From the NCBI RefSeq assembly GCF_039830135.1, contig NZ_CP156081.1, forward strand, positions 2,404,001 through 2,468,000: DNA of 64,000 nt, given 5' to 3'. Each line of letters opens with the position of its first letter. Within the stretch, counting starts at the first letter, position 1. The notes below the pieces were generated by a model. That model was not told the DNA's origin. It did no database searches and saw nothing but the letters and a program-made list of their open reading frames with translations. Position numbers and translations under genes: made by a program. Below are positions 35,210 through 42,588 of this stretch, in pieces. The stretch comes from Defluviimonas sp. SAOS-178_SWC. GTDB lineage: Bacteria; Pseudomonadota; Alphaproteobacteria; Rhodobacterales; Rhodobacteraceae.

Positions 35210-35473
35210 CTAGCTTGCACGCACGATCCGCAGGCTTTTCGGCGCGATCAACGAAGGGGCCTTGCCTTTCGCCCCCATCCGAAGTGAGAACCCGCGCTCG
35301 ATCAGCGCCACCGCTTCGTCGAGCGTCTTCACATAGGTCGCATGCTCGGCATGGTGCTTGTGCTTGCCATGCGCCGGGTCGGCAAGTTGATAGCCCTTGC
35401 TGGTGACGACCGGTTCCTCCACGCCGCCGCTCCGGGAGGAGATCCGTTCAATCCTGATGACACGTCCGCTCAT
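35210..35473 (-). CDS. Small hypothetical protein
   Basis: An 87-aa basic protein (MSGRVIRIERISSRSG..., with a His-rich GKHKHHAEHATY stretch in the middle and a C-terminal APKSLRIVRAS). No domain is recognised. Coding style is like that of the neighbours. It is divergent from the WYL regulator at 35,623 and shares a 150-bp promoter gap with it. Function unknown; an accessory role in the adjacent system is possible. Confidence 0.6.
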   Translation of the reverse strand: MSGRVIRIERISSRSGGVEEPVVTSKGYQLADPAHGKHKHHAEHATYVKTLDEAVALIERGFSLRMGAKGKAPSLIAPKSLRIVRAS

Positions 35474-35622
35474 GTTGCAGTTCCTTCTGCCAAGTTGGTG
35501 CGCCCCGCCGAACCCAAGGAACTCGTGCTGAAATCACCTGCTAAGGGAATCACTCGACAGGGCGCAGGAACCTTCCTAGCCTGCGAGGGTGTCAAACTCT
35601 GACAGGCTCGCTCGGTGCGCTT

Positions 35623-40400: not shown

Positions 40401-42588
40401 GCTCATGGAGCGAGCCCTTCTGTGGCTGCACGAACAAGAGGTGGTGACGCTCGGCAAGGGGCTGACCGTATTCCGGCCGGCGATGACCGTGCATCTGCGT
40501 TCAGGCGGCGGTGGTTTTACCCAGAAGGACTTCACACCGCTCGATGAGCACTACGGCGAGCAAACGATCCAGACCCATGTGATGGCGGCCTATGCCGAAG
40601 CGGGTCTCGATGCGATGGATCGGGCGCTGCGGCTCTCTGAAGACTACTTCGTGCTGGATCGCGATGCATTCCTGCGACGCTGGATGCCAGGGCGCGGTGC
40701 CGAAATCCGACGCCAGACGACCGGGACATCCTGGAAGGCAATCGTCGAGGCGCTCGACAATCCGGTGCAGCAGAAGATCGTCGCGGACGATCGGGAACAG
40801 ACCAACGTGCTGGTGCTCGCCGGCCCCGGATCGGGCAAGACACGGGTTCTTGTCCACCGGATTGCCTATCTGGTCCGGGTTCGGCGTGAAGATCCGCGCG
40901 GGATTCTGGTCCTTGCCTACAACCGGCATGCCGCCGCCGAAATCCGCGCGCGGCTTCGGCACCTGATCGGCGACGATGCCAGTCGCGTCACCGTGTCCAC
41001 CTGCCACGCCTTGGCGATGCGTCTCGTCGGCGCCAGCCTTGTCGGCGCTTCGGGAGATGCTCATGATTTCGACGGCATCGTGTTGGAGGCTGTGCGCCAA
41101 CTGAATGGCGAAGGTCTGACCAGGTCAGAAGCCGAAGCGCAGCGCGACGCGTTGATCCAGGGCTATCGTTGGATCCTGGTCGATGAGTATCAGGACATCG
41201 GACCCGAGGAATACGCTTTGATCGCGGCAGTTGCGGGTCGATCCCTAGACGACCCTGACCTGCGCCTGAGCCTCTTTGCCGTGGGCGACGATGATCAGAA
41301 CATCTATGCGTTCGCCGGCGCCTCGATCCGTTTCATCCGCCAGTTCGAGACGGATTACAAAGCCAAGCCGGAATTCCTCACCGCCAACTACCGCTCGACG
41401 CGACATATCATCGATGCCGCCAACAGCGTGATTGCCCCTGCGACAGAGCGGATGAAGACAGGGCACGACATCAGCATAGACCAGAAGCGCGAGAAGGATC
41501 CGCCGGGCGGCGCGATGGCAGAGCATGACCCGGTCGCAGCCGGACGCGTGGAGCTTCTGCACTGTCCGCCCGGAGACTTCGCCCAAGCCGTCGCAGCGGT
41601 GGATCAGCTTATCCGTCTCTCGCGCCTTGACCCCAATTGGAGTTGGTCGCGTGCGGCCGTCATTTCGCGCGACTGGCGTCGGCTGGGAGCCGTACGGGCC
41701 TATTCCGAGGCGCAAGGCATTCCGGTCGAGATGGCCAACGAAAGTCTCCCGAACATCTGGCGTCTTCGGGAAATGCAGAGCTTCGTGGCCGAGTTGCGAC
41801 GAGACCCTGCGCGGCTTCTCGGCATCGCGGAGCTTCTCGAGCTCCTGAACGAACAGACGCGGAACCGATGGACCGATCTGATCGCCGAAGGCATTGCGGC
41901 GCTCGCGCGCGAGATCGCGGACAAGGCGATGCCGGTTCCGGACCTTGTCGAGTGGTTTGCCGAATGGTCGAGAGATACGCGCGGCGAGCAACGAGGCTTG
42001 TTGCTGCTAACGGCCCATCGGGCCAAAGGGTTGGAGTTCGACTACGTCGTGATCCTGGATGGGGGCTGGGAGCAGCCTTCGCGTGGAGAGGATGCCGATG
42101 CGCCCCGTCGTCTCTTCTATGTCGCCATGACGCGCGCGCGGCGCAGTCTGGCGGTCATGGCCTCGGGTGCACATCCATTCCTCAAGCCCCAACAGGATGC
42201 CGTGCTGGAACGACCTGTCGTGCCTGATCCGGCTGGGCTCGCCGGGCGCCCACCCCATTACGTGACACCGGATCTGAAACTGGTGGACCTCTCGTGGGCG
42301 GGACGGCTCAATGACGGTCATCCCGCGCTCGCAGCCATTAACGCGGCCCAGGTCGGGGATCCCGTGACGCTGGTCGCAGACGGGACGGCTTGGATCATTC
42401 GCAATACTAAGGGGCAGAAGCTCGGCCGCATGGCGCGCGCCTACACAGCCCCTGAGGGGTTGGAGTTTCTGCGCGGCGAGATCGGCGCGATCGTCCGCTG
42501 GCGCAAGAGCGACAACAAGGAAGAATTCCGCAGCACTATCCGGCGAGACGAATGGGAAGCGATCCTGCCGGAACTGGTCTTCGGCTGA
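37492..42588 (+). CDS. DEDD exonuclease - RecQ helicase - UvrD helicase triple fusion
   Basis: A 1,698-aa protein with three catalytic parts. Residues 1-180 look like a DnaQ-type 3'-5' exonuclease: SVDIEVD (D16, E18), GHNILRHDLPHL and NPELDARLVFQVL supply the acidic residues. Residues about 300-650 are a RecQ-type SF2 helicase: Walker A LPTGTGKSVCYQ near 320, VLDEAHCISKWGHDFRPDY near 421, and QEAGRAGRDREHANCVLLF. Residues about 1,100-1,560 are a UvrD/Rep-type SF1 helicase: VLAGPGSGKTRVLVHR near 1,110, LVDEYQDIGPEEY, VGDDDQNIYAFAGA, TAHRAKGLEFDYV and YVAMTRARRSL. The combination of two helicases and a nuclease suggests DNA-end processing or phage-DNA degradation. It follows the WYL and HEPN genes. 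Confidence 0.88.
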   Translation: MYEPSDKLLEQCVSVDIEVDPKTARIFAFAAVQRGETPPILSRKGDLEGALDRLERSLANSDHLIGHNILRHDLPHLAAARPRLAKLFGAPIDTLWLNPLAFPRNPYHHLVKHYHDGRLQAGHVNNPELDARLVFQVLENQIDAFRDLHRAEPDALTAYHFLATRQEASAGFDAVFNLTRSAPAPSARAAEDAIRRLLSGRACSRRIEQTLGRLASPQLGWPMAYALSWISVAGGESVMPPWVRMQFREAALIVRHLRDTACDSPDCAWCREKNDPKRALSRWFGFEAFRPQPMDDMGRPLQERIVDEAMHGQSILGILPTGTGKSVCYQIPALSKFDKTGALTVVISPLVALMSDQVQGMARAGISSAVTVNGMLSLPERQDALDKVRMGEAAMLLISPEQLRSVSVRSVLAQREVGLWVLDEAHCISKWGHDFRPDYRYVGRFIKEFSGDEPSAPILCLTATAKPEVVRDIREHFLSRLEADLLLLDGGAVRTNLTFEVRPTQRGTKLADILDVIEAKLPREGASGAVVYCATRSTTERVAEFLKQQGLAAEHFHAGLKPDEKRDIQERFRIGELRVIAATNAFGMGIDKPDIRLVVHGDIPGSLENYLQEAGRAGRDREHANCVLLFAGDDVERQFSLSARSRLARHEIGAILKALRRLDGRTSKHGEVVATSGEIVRAEKDLEFERDSATDDTRVKTAVSWLEEAKLLTREENRVQVFPSSLRVQRLEEAETILAAADITGTRRQQLLDIVRHLMNAPPDQGISTDELTGVSGLTGGGLNKALSDLEALGIAQNDVVVTVFIHVGVEGQSSQRLGQASRLEEDLIALMREAAPDIEGDEASPLHLAETCQALRDRDHGSARPDIVEKLLRGIAGDGRDQDGGRGNIRLRKASRNTLMVALQRSWPVLEQTAAIRRQAAELLLAHLVGKLTKGTRGKDLQVETTMGDLLASLSGDAFLRGAVQDMNKLMERALLWLHEQEVVTLGKGLTVFRPAMTVHLRSGGGGFTQKDFTPLDEHYGEQTIQTHVMAAYAEAGLDAMDRALRLSEDYFVLDRDAFLRRWMPGRGAEIRRQTTGTSWKAIVEALDNPVQQKIVADDREQTNVLVLAGPGSGKTRVLVHRIAYLVRVRREDPRGILVLAYNRHAAAEIRARLRHLIGDDASRVTVSTCHALAMRLVGASLVGASGDAHDFDGIVLEAVRQLNGEGLTRSEAEAQRDALIQGYRWILVDEYQDIGPEEYALIAAVAGRSLDDPDLRLSLFAVGDDDQNIYAFAGASIRFIRQFETDYKAKPEFLTANYRSTRHIIDAANSVIAPATERMKTGHDISIDQKREKDPPGGAMAEHDPVAAGRVELLHCPPGDFAQAVAAVDQLIRLSRLDPNWSWSRAAVISRDWRRLGAVRAYSEAQGIPVEMANESLPNIWRLREMQSFVAELRRDPARLLGIAELLELLNEQTRNRWTDLIAEGIAALAREIADKAMPVPDLVEWFAEWSRDTRGEQRGLLLLTAHRAKGLEFDYVVILDGGWEQPSRGEDADAPRRLFYVAMTRARRSLAVMASGAHPFLKPQQDAVLERPVVPDPAGLAGRPPHYVTPDLKLVDLSWAGRLNDGHPALAAINAAQVGDPVTLVADGTAWIIRNTKGQKLGRMARAYTAPEGLEFLRGEIGAIVRWRKSDNKEEFRSTIRRDEWEAILPELVFG

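What the first reader, a model, noticed from the sequence alone, without database searches (positions are those of the whole stretch)
35210..42588. WYL-HEPN-(exonuclease-RecQ-UvrD) candidate defense system
A regulator, a putative RNase with an Rx4H motif and a 1,698-aa protein that joins a DEDD exonuclease to two helicases of different superfamilies lie in a row inside a defense island. DNA damage or phage DNA processed by the giant protein could unleash the HEPN RNase. I cannot match this set to any named system, so it is the best candidate in the window for something undescribed.
Basis: partly seen in the sequence, partly recalled or inferred. Interest (0 to 1): 0.7.

Follow-up and report, generated by a model that had tools for sequence, protein, structure and literature searches.

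The report
WYL-controlled multi-nuclease defence island
The regulator and the likely RNA-cutting gene are real, but their usual partner is a neighbouring nuclease-helicase rather than the giant helicase, and one short DNA control site seems to tie these nuclease genes into a single, probably antiviral, switchable unit that also travels on plasmids.

Summary
The three genes are real and their motifs are as described, but they are not a conserved three-gene system. The giant DEDD-RecQ-UvrD protein is a widespread stand-alone accessory gene: HEPN lies within 7 kb in 4 of 36 giant loci, three of them one 90-97% lineage. HEPN goes instead with the divergent TM0106 nuclease-helicase (48 of 80 HEPN loci; 14 of 20 full-length HEPN places in 292 genomes; 13 of 21 plasmids) and WYL (54 of 80). 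In two genomes it sits inside a TM0106-HEPN-McrB-McrC run, in another inside SbcD-SbcC-TM0106-HEPN. A 23-bp site (TGTCA-N5-TGACA) lies in the WYL promoter, with copies before TM0106 and SbcD/YhaO-type genes. The pattern GTGTCA-N5-TGACA occurs twice in the 4.34-Mb genome, at the WYL-HEPN and YhaO-YhaN promoters of this island. Best reading: a WYL-regulated defence module (TM0106 + HEPN, with exchangeable McrBC, Tiamat-like or SbcCD-like partners); the giant is cargo. Linkage and site are shown; WYL binding, ssDNA sensing, derepression and RNA-cleaving growth arrest are inferred. My searches of the open-access library found no description.

The parts
35623..36603 (+). WYL-WCX transcription regulator (326 aa), DriD-like over its full length
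   Evidence: Pfam WYL 6.7e-8 and WCX 6.2e-13; PDB 8tp8/9pfq E about 1.5e-42 over residues 3-318
36626..37294 (+). HEPN RNase candidate (222 aa from TTG; most relatives listed are 221 aa, which fits a start at the next codon, ATG 36629), motif RNQLIHGG at residues 168-175
   Evidence: R168, N169 and H173 invariant in 29 aligned sequences; 13 of these 29 match Pfam HEPN_RiboL-PSP, best 4.8e-5 (the window's own copy does not); all-helical model pLDDT 86.7
31758..35033 (-). TM0106-family protein: RecB-like nuclease region, RNase_H_2 domain, DNA2/UPF1-like SF1 helicase (1091 aa)
   Evidence: TIGR03491 264.7 bits against cut-off 97.45; RNase_H_2, AAA_11, AAA_12; linkage to HEPN
28047..31757 (-). McrB-like AAA+ GTPase (1236 aa), motif GTMNTAD, abutting TM0106
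   Evidence: Pfam AAA_5 4.1e-14; sequence; homologues in 18 of 80 HEPN loci
26728..28047 (-). McrC nuclease (439 aa)
   Evidence: Pfam McrBC 3e-73
35210..35473 (-). small protein of unknown function (87 aa) between TM0106 and WYL; accessory, present in a minority of loci
   Evidence: tblastn in L009, L011-L013, L018, L019, L025, L041, L044, L054, L055; a hypothetical gene is annotated at the same place on pOT1-5
35586..35608 (+). control site of the WYL-HEPN promoter (TGTCA-N5-TGACA; follows a -35-like TCGACA, 17 bp and a -10-like TAGCCT)
   Evidence: 10 of 10 half-site bases; the best match reaches 9 of 10 or more in 41 of 42 WYL-TM0106 intergenic regions and in 39 of 42 lies 9-24 bp before the WYL start; 32.5 bits, a training site
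35109..35131 (.). second copy of the site, centre 87 bp upstream of the TM0106 start
   Evidence: 21.0 bits, not a training site
47447..47469 (.). third copy of the site, centre 57 bp upstream of the YhaO-like gene
   Evidence: 25.5 bits, not a training site; with the WYL site, the only exact GTGTCAN5TGACA matches in the 4.34-Mb genome
46082..47401 (-). YhaO/SbcD-like metallophosphoesterase (439 aa)
   Evidence: Metallophos 1.4e-13; below the cut-offs of the SbcD and Mre11 models listed; the YhaO name is recalled
42636..46085 (-). YhaN/SbcC-like AAA_27 ATPase (1149 aa)
   Evidence: AAA_27 8.7e-61; the YhaN name is recalled
37492..42588 (+). giant DEDD exonuclease-RecQ-UvrD protein (1698 aa) with conserved C203, C262, C267, C270; judged to be a separate, stand-alone gene
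   Evidence: neighbourhoods

Best explanation
The WYL and HEPN genes belong to a mobile, WYL-regulated nuclease module whose commonest partner is the TM0106 nuclease-helicase, here divergent from them. Exchangeable DNA-acting modules join it: McrB-McrC here, a Tiamat-like protein or an SbcCD-like pair elsewhere, and a YhaO-YhaN pair in this island. Shown: the linkage, two kinds of same-strand gene runs that contain HEPN, and a shared 23-bp inverted-repeat site at the WYL-HEPN, TM0106 and SbcD/YhaO-type promoters. Inferred: the WYL dimer binds this site, which covers the likely transcription start, and holds the module down. Nucleic acid made during phage attack, most likely ssDNA as for DriD, binds the WYL domain and releases the block. 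McrBC, TM0106 and the Mre11-Rad50-like pair then cut and unwind invading DNA, and the HEPN protein, as a dimer, cuts RNA and stops growth if the DNA attack fails. The giant DEDD-RecQ-UvrD protein is a separate accessory gene that happened to land behind HEPN in one lineage; it may gain expression by read-through.
For: Linkage: TM0106 in 48 and WYL in 54 of 80 HEPN loci (11 of the 32 loci without TM0106 have under 4.5 kb upstream); TM0106 within 10 kb of 14 of 20 full-length HEPN places among 292 genomes of the order; 13 of 21 plasmid records with at least 80% of HEPN have TM0106 within 7.1 kb. Same-strand runs: TM0106-HEPN-McrB-McrC in L169 and L217, genomes of two other genera; SbcD-SbcC-TM0106-HEPN with overlapping ORFs in L074. 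Site: 81 sites of at least 16.5 bits in 104 loci, 77 of them from 30 bp past to 250 bp before the start of a WYL, TM0106, SbcD-like, YhaO or HEPN gene; 2 in the same loci shuffled; 2 in 40 giant-only loci, about 1 and 5 kb from the giant's start. Plasmid loci not used for training (though kin to training loci): sites in 4 of 4 with WYL, one of them also before an SbcD/YhaO-like gene, and in 0 of 2 without WYL. Own genome: GTGTCAN5TGACA occurs twice, both in this island.
Against: 32 of 80 HEPN loci show no TM0106 and 20 show none of TM0106, WYL, McrBC or giant, so HEPN also lives alone or beside other systems such as Zorya, BREX or type III restriction genes. TM0106 also occurs without HEPN (L218-L221). 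40 of 104 loci have no site above threshold, some of them with a WYL gene. The matrix was trained on 39 WYL-promoter sites from these loci, so the WYL counts are partly circular; the TM0106, SbcD-like, YhaO and HEPN counts are not, but most TM0106-only sites are in loci with the small 87-aa gene between two similar promoter blocks, where in the four read (window, L012, L018, L019) the outer copy points towards WYL, so its control of TM0106 is uncertain. One giant (L124, Thiothrix plasmid) has a 14.2-bit near-match just before its start, below threshold. The looser pattern GTGTCAN5TGNCA occurs 2-13 times per genome, also in genomes without HEPN. The HEPN model has no significant match to a solved HEPN. 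No ligand, binding or phage test was possible.
Confidence: 0.6

Rival explanations
1. One reading: WYL, HEPN and the giant exonuclease-RecQ-UvrD protein form one unit in which DNA processing by the giant unleashes the HEPN RNase.
For: The giant follows HEPN by 197 bp on the same strand with no promoter or terminator called between; same order in G384 (= L009), G308 and L011; giant and HEPN lie a few kb apart in other arrangements in G372/L169 and L081, more often than chance placement in a genome would give.
Against: No giant in 76 of 80 HEPN loci; no HEPN in the fetched stretch of 32 of 36 giant loci nor near any of 17 giant-bearing plasmid places (8 of the 17 also checked by sequence); no site of 16.5 bits or more at the giant in 40 giant-only loci; one plasmid, pBEN, carries both genes about 356 kb apart.
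Confidence: 0.07
2. A plain defence island: HEPN, TM0106-McrBC, YhaNO, the giant and Gabija are separate systems that share a neighbourhood, and the WYL protein merely regulates whatever sits next to it, as BrxR-family regulators may do.
For: HEPN neighbours vary widely; HEPN occurs without WYL or TM0106; BrxR-family genes co-localise with many systems (PMC9122601, abstract and passages).
Against: HEPN inside same-strand TM0106/McrBC and SbcCD runs; the same site at separate promoters of these genes; the same gene set on plasmids of Haematobacter, Leisingera, Aminobacter and Sphingobium.
Confidence: 0.25
3. A DNA-repair or stress cassette rather than immunity: an ssDNA-sensing DriD-like regulator switches on helicases and nucleases after damage, and HEPN acts as a checkpoint RNase.
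For: DriD-like WYL protein; Mre11-Rad50-like, RecB-like and helicase partners.
Against: Patchy distribution (19 of 292 genomes of the order), plasmid carriage, exchange with McrBC and Tiamat-like modules, and defence genes as neighbours.
Confidence: 0.1

Closest known systems
CoCoNuT type II/III systems (McrB-McrC with a UPF1-like helicase and a HEPN effector; PMC11090510, passages seen)
   Same: McrB and McrC genes together with a DNA2/UPF1-like SF1 helicase and a HEPN protein in one locus
   Different: McrB here carries NxxD (GTMNTAD), not NxD; the helicase is fused to a TM0106 RecB-like nuclease and an RNase_H_2 domain; HEPN is a free protein of about 221 aa without a detected wHTH; a WYL gene is attached; McrBC is exchangeable
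BrxR-family WYL regulators (PMC9122601, abstract and passages seen)
   Same: wHTH-WYL regulator next to defence genes; BrxR is reported as a repressor, which the site geometry here also suggests
   Different: sequence is closest to DriD-type proteins among solved structures; the site also lies at TM0106 and SbcD/YhaO promoters
DriD of Caulobacter (PMC12340889, passages seen)
   Same: full-length similarity to DriD-type PDB entries, E about 1.5e-42
   Different: DriD activates from ATACGAC-N7-GTCGTAT sites that overlap -35; here TGTCA-N5-TGACA lies downstream of the -10-like element
HEPN families (PMC3710099, passages seen; Pfam PF18735 HEPN_RiboL-PSP)
   Same: RNxxxH motif; HEPN genes near restriction systems
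   Different: no L-PSP fusion; a partnership with TM0106 was not seen in the passages
DinG (DEDD exonuclease-helicase) and RecQ-family helicases, for the giant protein
   Same: N-terminal DEDD exonuclease fold joined to an SF2 helicase
   Different: RecQ-type instead of DinG/XPD-type SF2 motor, a conserved cysteine cluster between, and a second, UvrD-type SF1 motor at the C terminus

Membership tests
CoCoNuT | McrB/CnuB GTPase with NxD in place of NxxD | tested here: not met
   window McrB reads GTMNTAD; same string in 15 of 19 McrB homologues, 4 without a match to the pattern; that this string is the GTPase motif is recalled
CoCoNuT | HEPN effector as CnuE with an elongated wHTH domain | tested here: not met
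   221-222 aa, all-helical model with no strands; no wHTH match
CoCoNuT | UPF1-like SF1 helicase next to McrBC | tested here: inconclusive
   AAA_11/AAA_12 and IGHMBP2-family similarity, the latter 109.6 bits against a cut-off of 348.9
CoCoNuT | extensive coiled coils | not tested
   no coiled-coil predictor used
HEPN superfamily | Rx4-6H motif, usually RNxxxH | tested here: met
HEPN superfamily | profile similarity to a named HEPN family | tested here: met
   13 of 29 aligned members match PF18735, best 4.8e-5; the window copy itself does not
HEPN superfamily | HEPN helical fold | tested here: inconclusive
BrxR/DriD-type WYL regulators | wHTH + WYL + WCX | tested here: met
   WYL and WCX above cut-off, HTH_23 just below; full-length alignment to DriD-type entries
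BrxR/DriD-type WYL regulators | binds an inverted-repeat site at its own promoter | not testable with these tools
   a site is present in 41 of 42 intergenic regions at 9 or more of 10 bases; binding itself needs an experiment
Type IV McrBC | McrB AAA+ GTPase next to McrC | tested here: met
Gabija (for the giant) | GajA beside the UvrD-type GajB | tested here: not met
   in the rows shown the giant matches GajB models in its UvrD part; no GajA beside it; the true pair is at 52499-56550
Dpd (for the giant) | DpdF above its curated cut-off | tested here: not met
   197.8 bits against 550
RecQ family (for the giant) | TIGR00614 above cut-off | tested here: met
   306 bits against 219.8; RecQ equivalog TIGR01389 not reached, 349.7 against 640.2
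Mokosh (for TM0106) | full-length MkoA match with its partner genes | tested here: inconclusive
   MkoA 6e-47 with best stretch residues 896-1078 of 1091, in the helicase part; other stretches not shown; partner genes not searched

The most novel reading that the evidence does not exclude
One nucleic-acid-sensing WYL switch commands a whole team of nucleases through copies of one operator: a TM0106 nuclease-helicase, a HEPN RNase, a Mre11-Rad50-like pair and McrBC or a Tiamat-like protein. It would be a plug-and-play immune regulon, carried by conjugative plasmids, in which the recognition module is swapped while the regulator, nuclease-helicase and RNase stay, unlike systems defined by a fixed operon.
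Probability: 0.35. Interest if true: 0.75.

Novelty: new variant of a known kind. Interest (0 to 1): 0.6.

Why it matters
If true, it shows how several DNA- and RNA-cutting enzymes can be placed under one damage- or infection-sensing switch, with operator copies rather than operon structure marking which genes belong together. It offers a sequence handle (a 23-bp site) for delimiting defence regulons, a large HEPN family with a testable partner, and a likely parallel to CoCoNuT logic (McrBC + SF1 helicase + HEPN). It also takes the giant helicase out of the proposed system and leaves it as an uncharacterised, widespread accessory gene worth its own test.

Tried and rejected
Rejected: WYL-HEPN-giant as a unit. 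Rejected: membership in CoCoNuT (NxxD motif, free HEPN), and in Gabija or Dpd for the giant. HEPN fold search against solved structures gave nothing usable; single-sequence and profile searches of PDB sequences gave none. No HEPN match in 50,697 phage records by tblastn or in E. coli genomes by DNA comparison. In 249 genomes of the phylum 6 had a HEPN match at 1e-20. Literature: none of the papers listed by searches (two listed none) was seen to describe TM0106 with HEPN and WYL or the DEDD-RecQ-UvrD fusion; I saw listings, and passages of five papers (PMC11090510, PMC12458937, PMC3710099, PMC12340889, PMC9122601), no whole text; most subscription papers are not held. PHROGs gave one weak unnamed match for HEPN (0.0044). 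I first took the sites before TM0106 as simple TM0106 operators; reading four of them showed that in loci with the small 87-aa gene the promoter block looks duplicated and the outer copy points towards WYL, so that claim is weakened. Controls: shuffles in scripts keep base composition only, 185 of 2100 shuffled intergenic regions reached 8 of 10 bases (observed 42 of 42); the dinucleotide control is (4 sites with up to one mismatch in the window, 1.18 expected, 1 of 100 shuffles reached 4). The name Tiamat for TmtA and the names YhaN/YhaO are recalled.
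Full report
What is there. The window is G000:C2:2404001-2468000 of a 4.34-Mb genome in two contigs. Between 26.7 and 47.4 kb lie three gene groups: McrC (26728-28047), McrB (28047-31757) and a TM0106-family protein (31758-35033), all on the minus strand with touching ends; WYL (35623-36603) and HEPN (36626-37294) on the plus strand, followed after 197 bp by the giant protein (37492-42588); and a YhaN/SbcC-like ATPase (42636-46085) and YhaO/SbcD-like phosphoesterase (46082-47401) on the minus strand. A Gabija pair lies at 52499-56550. Other RecQ-like and UvrD-like proteins are encoded elsewhere in the genome.

The proteins. The 222-aa protein matched no Pfam, PADLOC or NCBIfam family on its own, but all 29 aligned sequences (the window's and 28 relatives of 48-89% identity) keep R168, N169 and H173, and 13 of the 29 match Pfam HEPN_RiboL-PSP, best 4.8e-5. 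NCBI names some relatives 'HEPN domain-containing protein'. The AlphaFold model is all-helical with pLDDT 86.7; structural searches were uninformative. RNase activity is therefore inferred from motif and family. The WYL protein aligns end to end with DriD-type structures (8tp8, 9pfq; E about 1.5e-42); that 7tzv, also matched, is a DriD-ssDNA-target DNA model is stated in PMC12340889 (passage), and that 8tp8 is the same protein I infer from its name and length. TM0106 carries a RecB-like region, an RNase_H_2 domain and an SF1 helicase; of 39 near-full copies, 39 match a Walker A pattern, 37 a DxE pattern and 36 a four-cysteine pattern (loose regular expressions).

Partners of HEPN. In 80 loci fetched with the HEPN protein (best 80 of 163 confirmed) TM0106 was present in 48, WYL in 54 (48 within 200 bp upstream), McrB in 18 and the giant in 3, plus a truncated giant in L010. 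Of the 32 loci without TM0106, 11 have under 4.5 kb upstream; 20 of 80 have none of TM0106, WYL, McrBC or giant. The closer relatives (L009-L067, about 65% identity or more) show TM0106 in 40 of 59, the more distant ones in 8 of 21. A second count found TmtA (Tiamat-like) in 8, SbcD-like in 11, SbcC-like in 13 and ZorA in 7 of the 80. In the order sample 14 of 20 full-length HEPN places have TM0106 within 10 kb and 4 have the giant. The two samples overlap. On plasmids, 13 of 21 records with at least 80% of HEPN have TM0106 within 7.1 kb. I chose eight HEPN plasmid regions to read: six hold TM0106 with WYL and HEPN (L224, L225, L226, L228, L230 within about 4 kb of each other; L231 with HEPN about 7 kb from TM0106; in L226 WYL is not annotated and was found by sequence as a partial frame), and two, from Acinetobacter and Thioclava, hold HEPN without them. 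Four of the six plasmids are typed conjugative.

Operons. In two genomes of two other genera HEPN sits inside a same-strand run TM0106-HEPN-McrB-McrC (L169: about 45 bp between the TM0106 and HEPN matches; L217: overlapping ORFs). In L074 SbcD-like, SbcC-like, TM0106 and HEPN ORFs overlap end to end. These placements are hard to explain if HEPN only shares a neighbourhood.

The control site. Upstream of WYL most intergenic regions share a -35-like TCGACA, 17 bp, a -10-like TAGCNT and then TGTCA-N5-TGACA, read by eye. The best match to this inverted repeat reaches at least 9 of 10 bases in 41 of 42 regions and lies 9-24 bp before the WYL start in 39 of 42. A matrix from 21 distinct WYL sites finds two further strong sites in the window, centred 57 bp upstream of yhaO (25.5 bits) and 87 bp upstream of TM0106 (21.0 bits); the next window site scores 12.3 and five shuffled windows reached at most 16.4. 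In 104 loci there are 81 sites of at least 16.5 bits: 58 at WYL (28 of them shared with a divergent TM0106), 12 at TM0106 alone, 4 at SbcD-like genes (three distinct contigs), 2 at yhaO, 1 at HEPN/TM0106 in a locus where no WYL was found, 4 unassigned; shuffled loci give 2; 40 loci have none; 40 giant-only loci (812 kb) have 2, about 1 and 5 kb from the giant's start. One giant has a weaker 14.2-bit match just before its start (L124). In plasmid loci not used for training, but kin to training loci, the site is present in 4 of 4 with WYL, once also about 70 bp upstream of an SbcD/YhaO-like gene, and absent in 2 of 2 without WYL (threshold 14 bits; the two plasmids fetched later were not scanned). 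The pattern GTGTCAN5TGACA occurs twice in the 4.34-Mb genome, at the WYL and yhaO promoters; the looser GTGTCAN5TGNCA occurs five times, three in this island, and 2-13 times in each of 22 genomes searched, also in those without HEPN, so the loose pattern alone is not specific.

How it most likely works. Shown: gene content, linkage, same-strand runs, site. Inferred: the WYL dimer binds the site; because the site follows the -10-like element, binding should repress, as reported for BrxR (PMC9122601, abstract and passages), whereas DriD activates from sites over -35 (PMC12340889, passages). The likely signal is ssDNA by homology to DriD. On release, nuclease-helicase, McrBC and the Mre11-Rad50-like pair attack DNA and HEPN attacks RNA. 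My estimates: composition about 0.85, repression 0.6, ssDNA as signal 0.35, HEPN-driven growth arrest 0.5.

Comparison. The nearest described logic that I found is that of CoCoNuT types II/III: McrB, McrC, a UPF1-like helicase and a HEPN effector (PMC11090510, passages). The McrB here has NxxD (15 of 19 homologues show GTMNTAD, 4 gave no match) and HEPN lacks the wHTH part, so it is not filed there. It works like such a system but is built from other parts. I therefore call it a new variant of a known kind.

Noticed in passing
52499-56550: Complete Gabija pair (GajB 52499-54496, GajA 54493-56550), strong PADLOC matches.
   Followed up: yes
35034-35622: The promoter block with the inverted-repeat site looks present twice, on either side of the small 87-aa gene; many shorter intergenic regions elsewhere (104-122 bp) have one copy, as if the gene had been inserted with a duplication.
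   Followed up: partly
L218:4238-8304: WYL gene followed by a 1002-aa UvrD/helicase IV-type protein in the place where HEPN usually sits, beside TM0106-McrB-McrC.
   Followed up: partly
L012:474-4709, L017:427-4770 and others: A TmtA-type protein downstream of TM0106 in place of McrBC (8 of 80 loci by similarity; PADLOC match shown for L017); sacsin-domain proteins in L023, L031, L039.
   Followed up: partly
L065-L067, L072-L074, L084: Zorya genes near HEPN in 7 of 80 loci; ZorA confirmed by PADLOC in L072 and L084 and ZorD in L084, the rest by similarity.
   Followed up: partly
L169, L179, L180, L197: A helicase of about 1080 aa near the giant protein in 4 of 41 giant loci; the L169 copy has PLD, ResIII and DUF3427 domains.
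   Followed up: partly
L010:1965-3062: The giant gene ends after about a fifth of its length inside a long contig although WYL and HEPN are present; described only.
   Followed up: no
G384:C2:601102-601431: A second, partial HEPN copy (residues 1-110, 95% identical) in a genome of the same genus.
   Followed up: no
22999-24600 and 59554-61341: Two large genes that look like serine recombinases by eye flank the island, fitting a mobile element.
   Followed up: no
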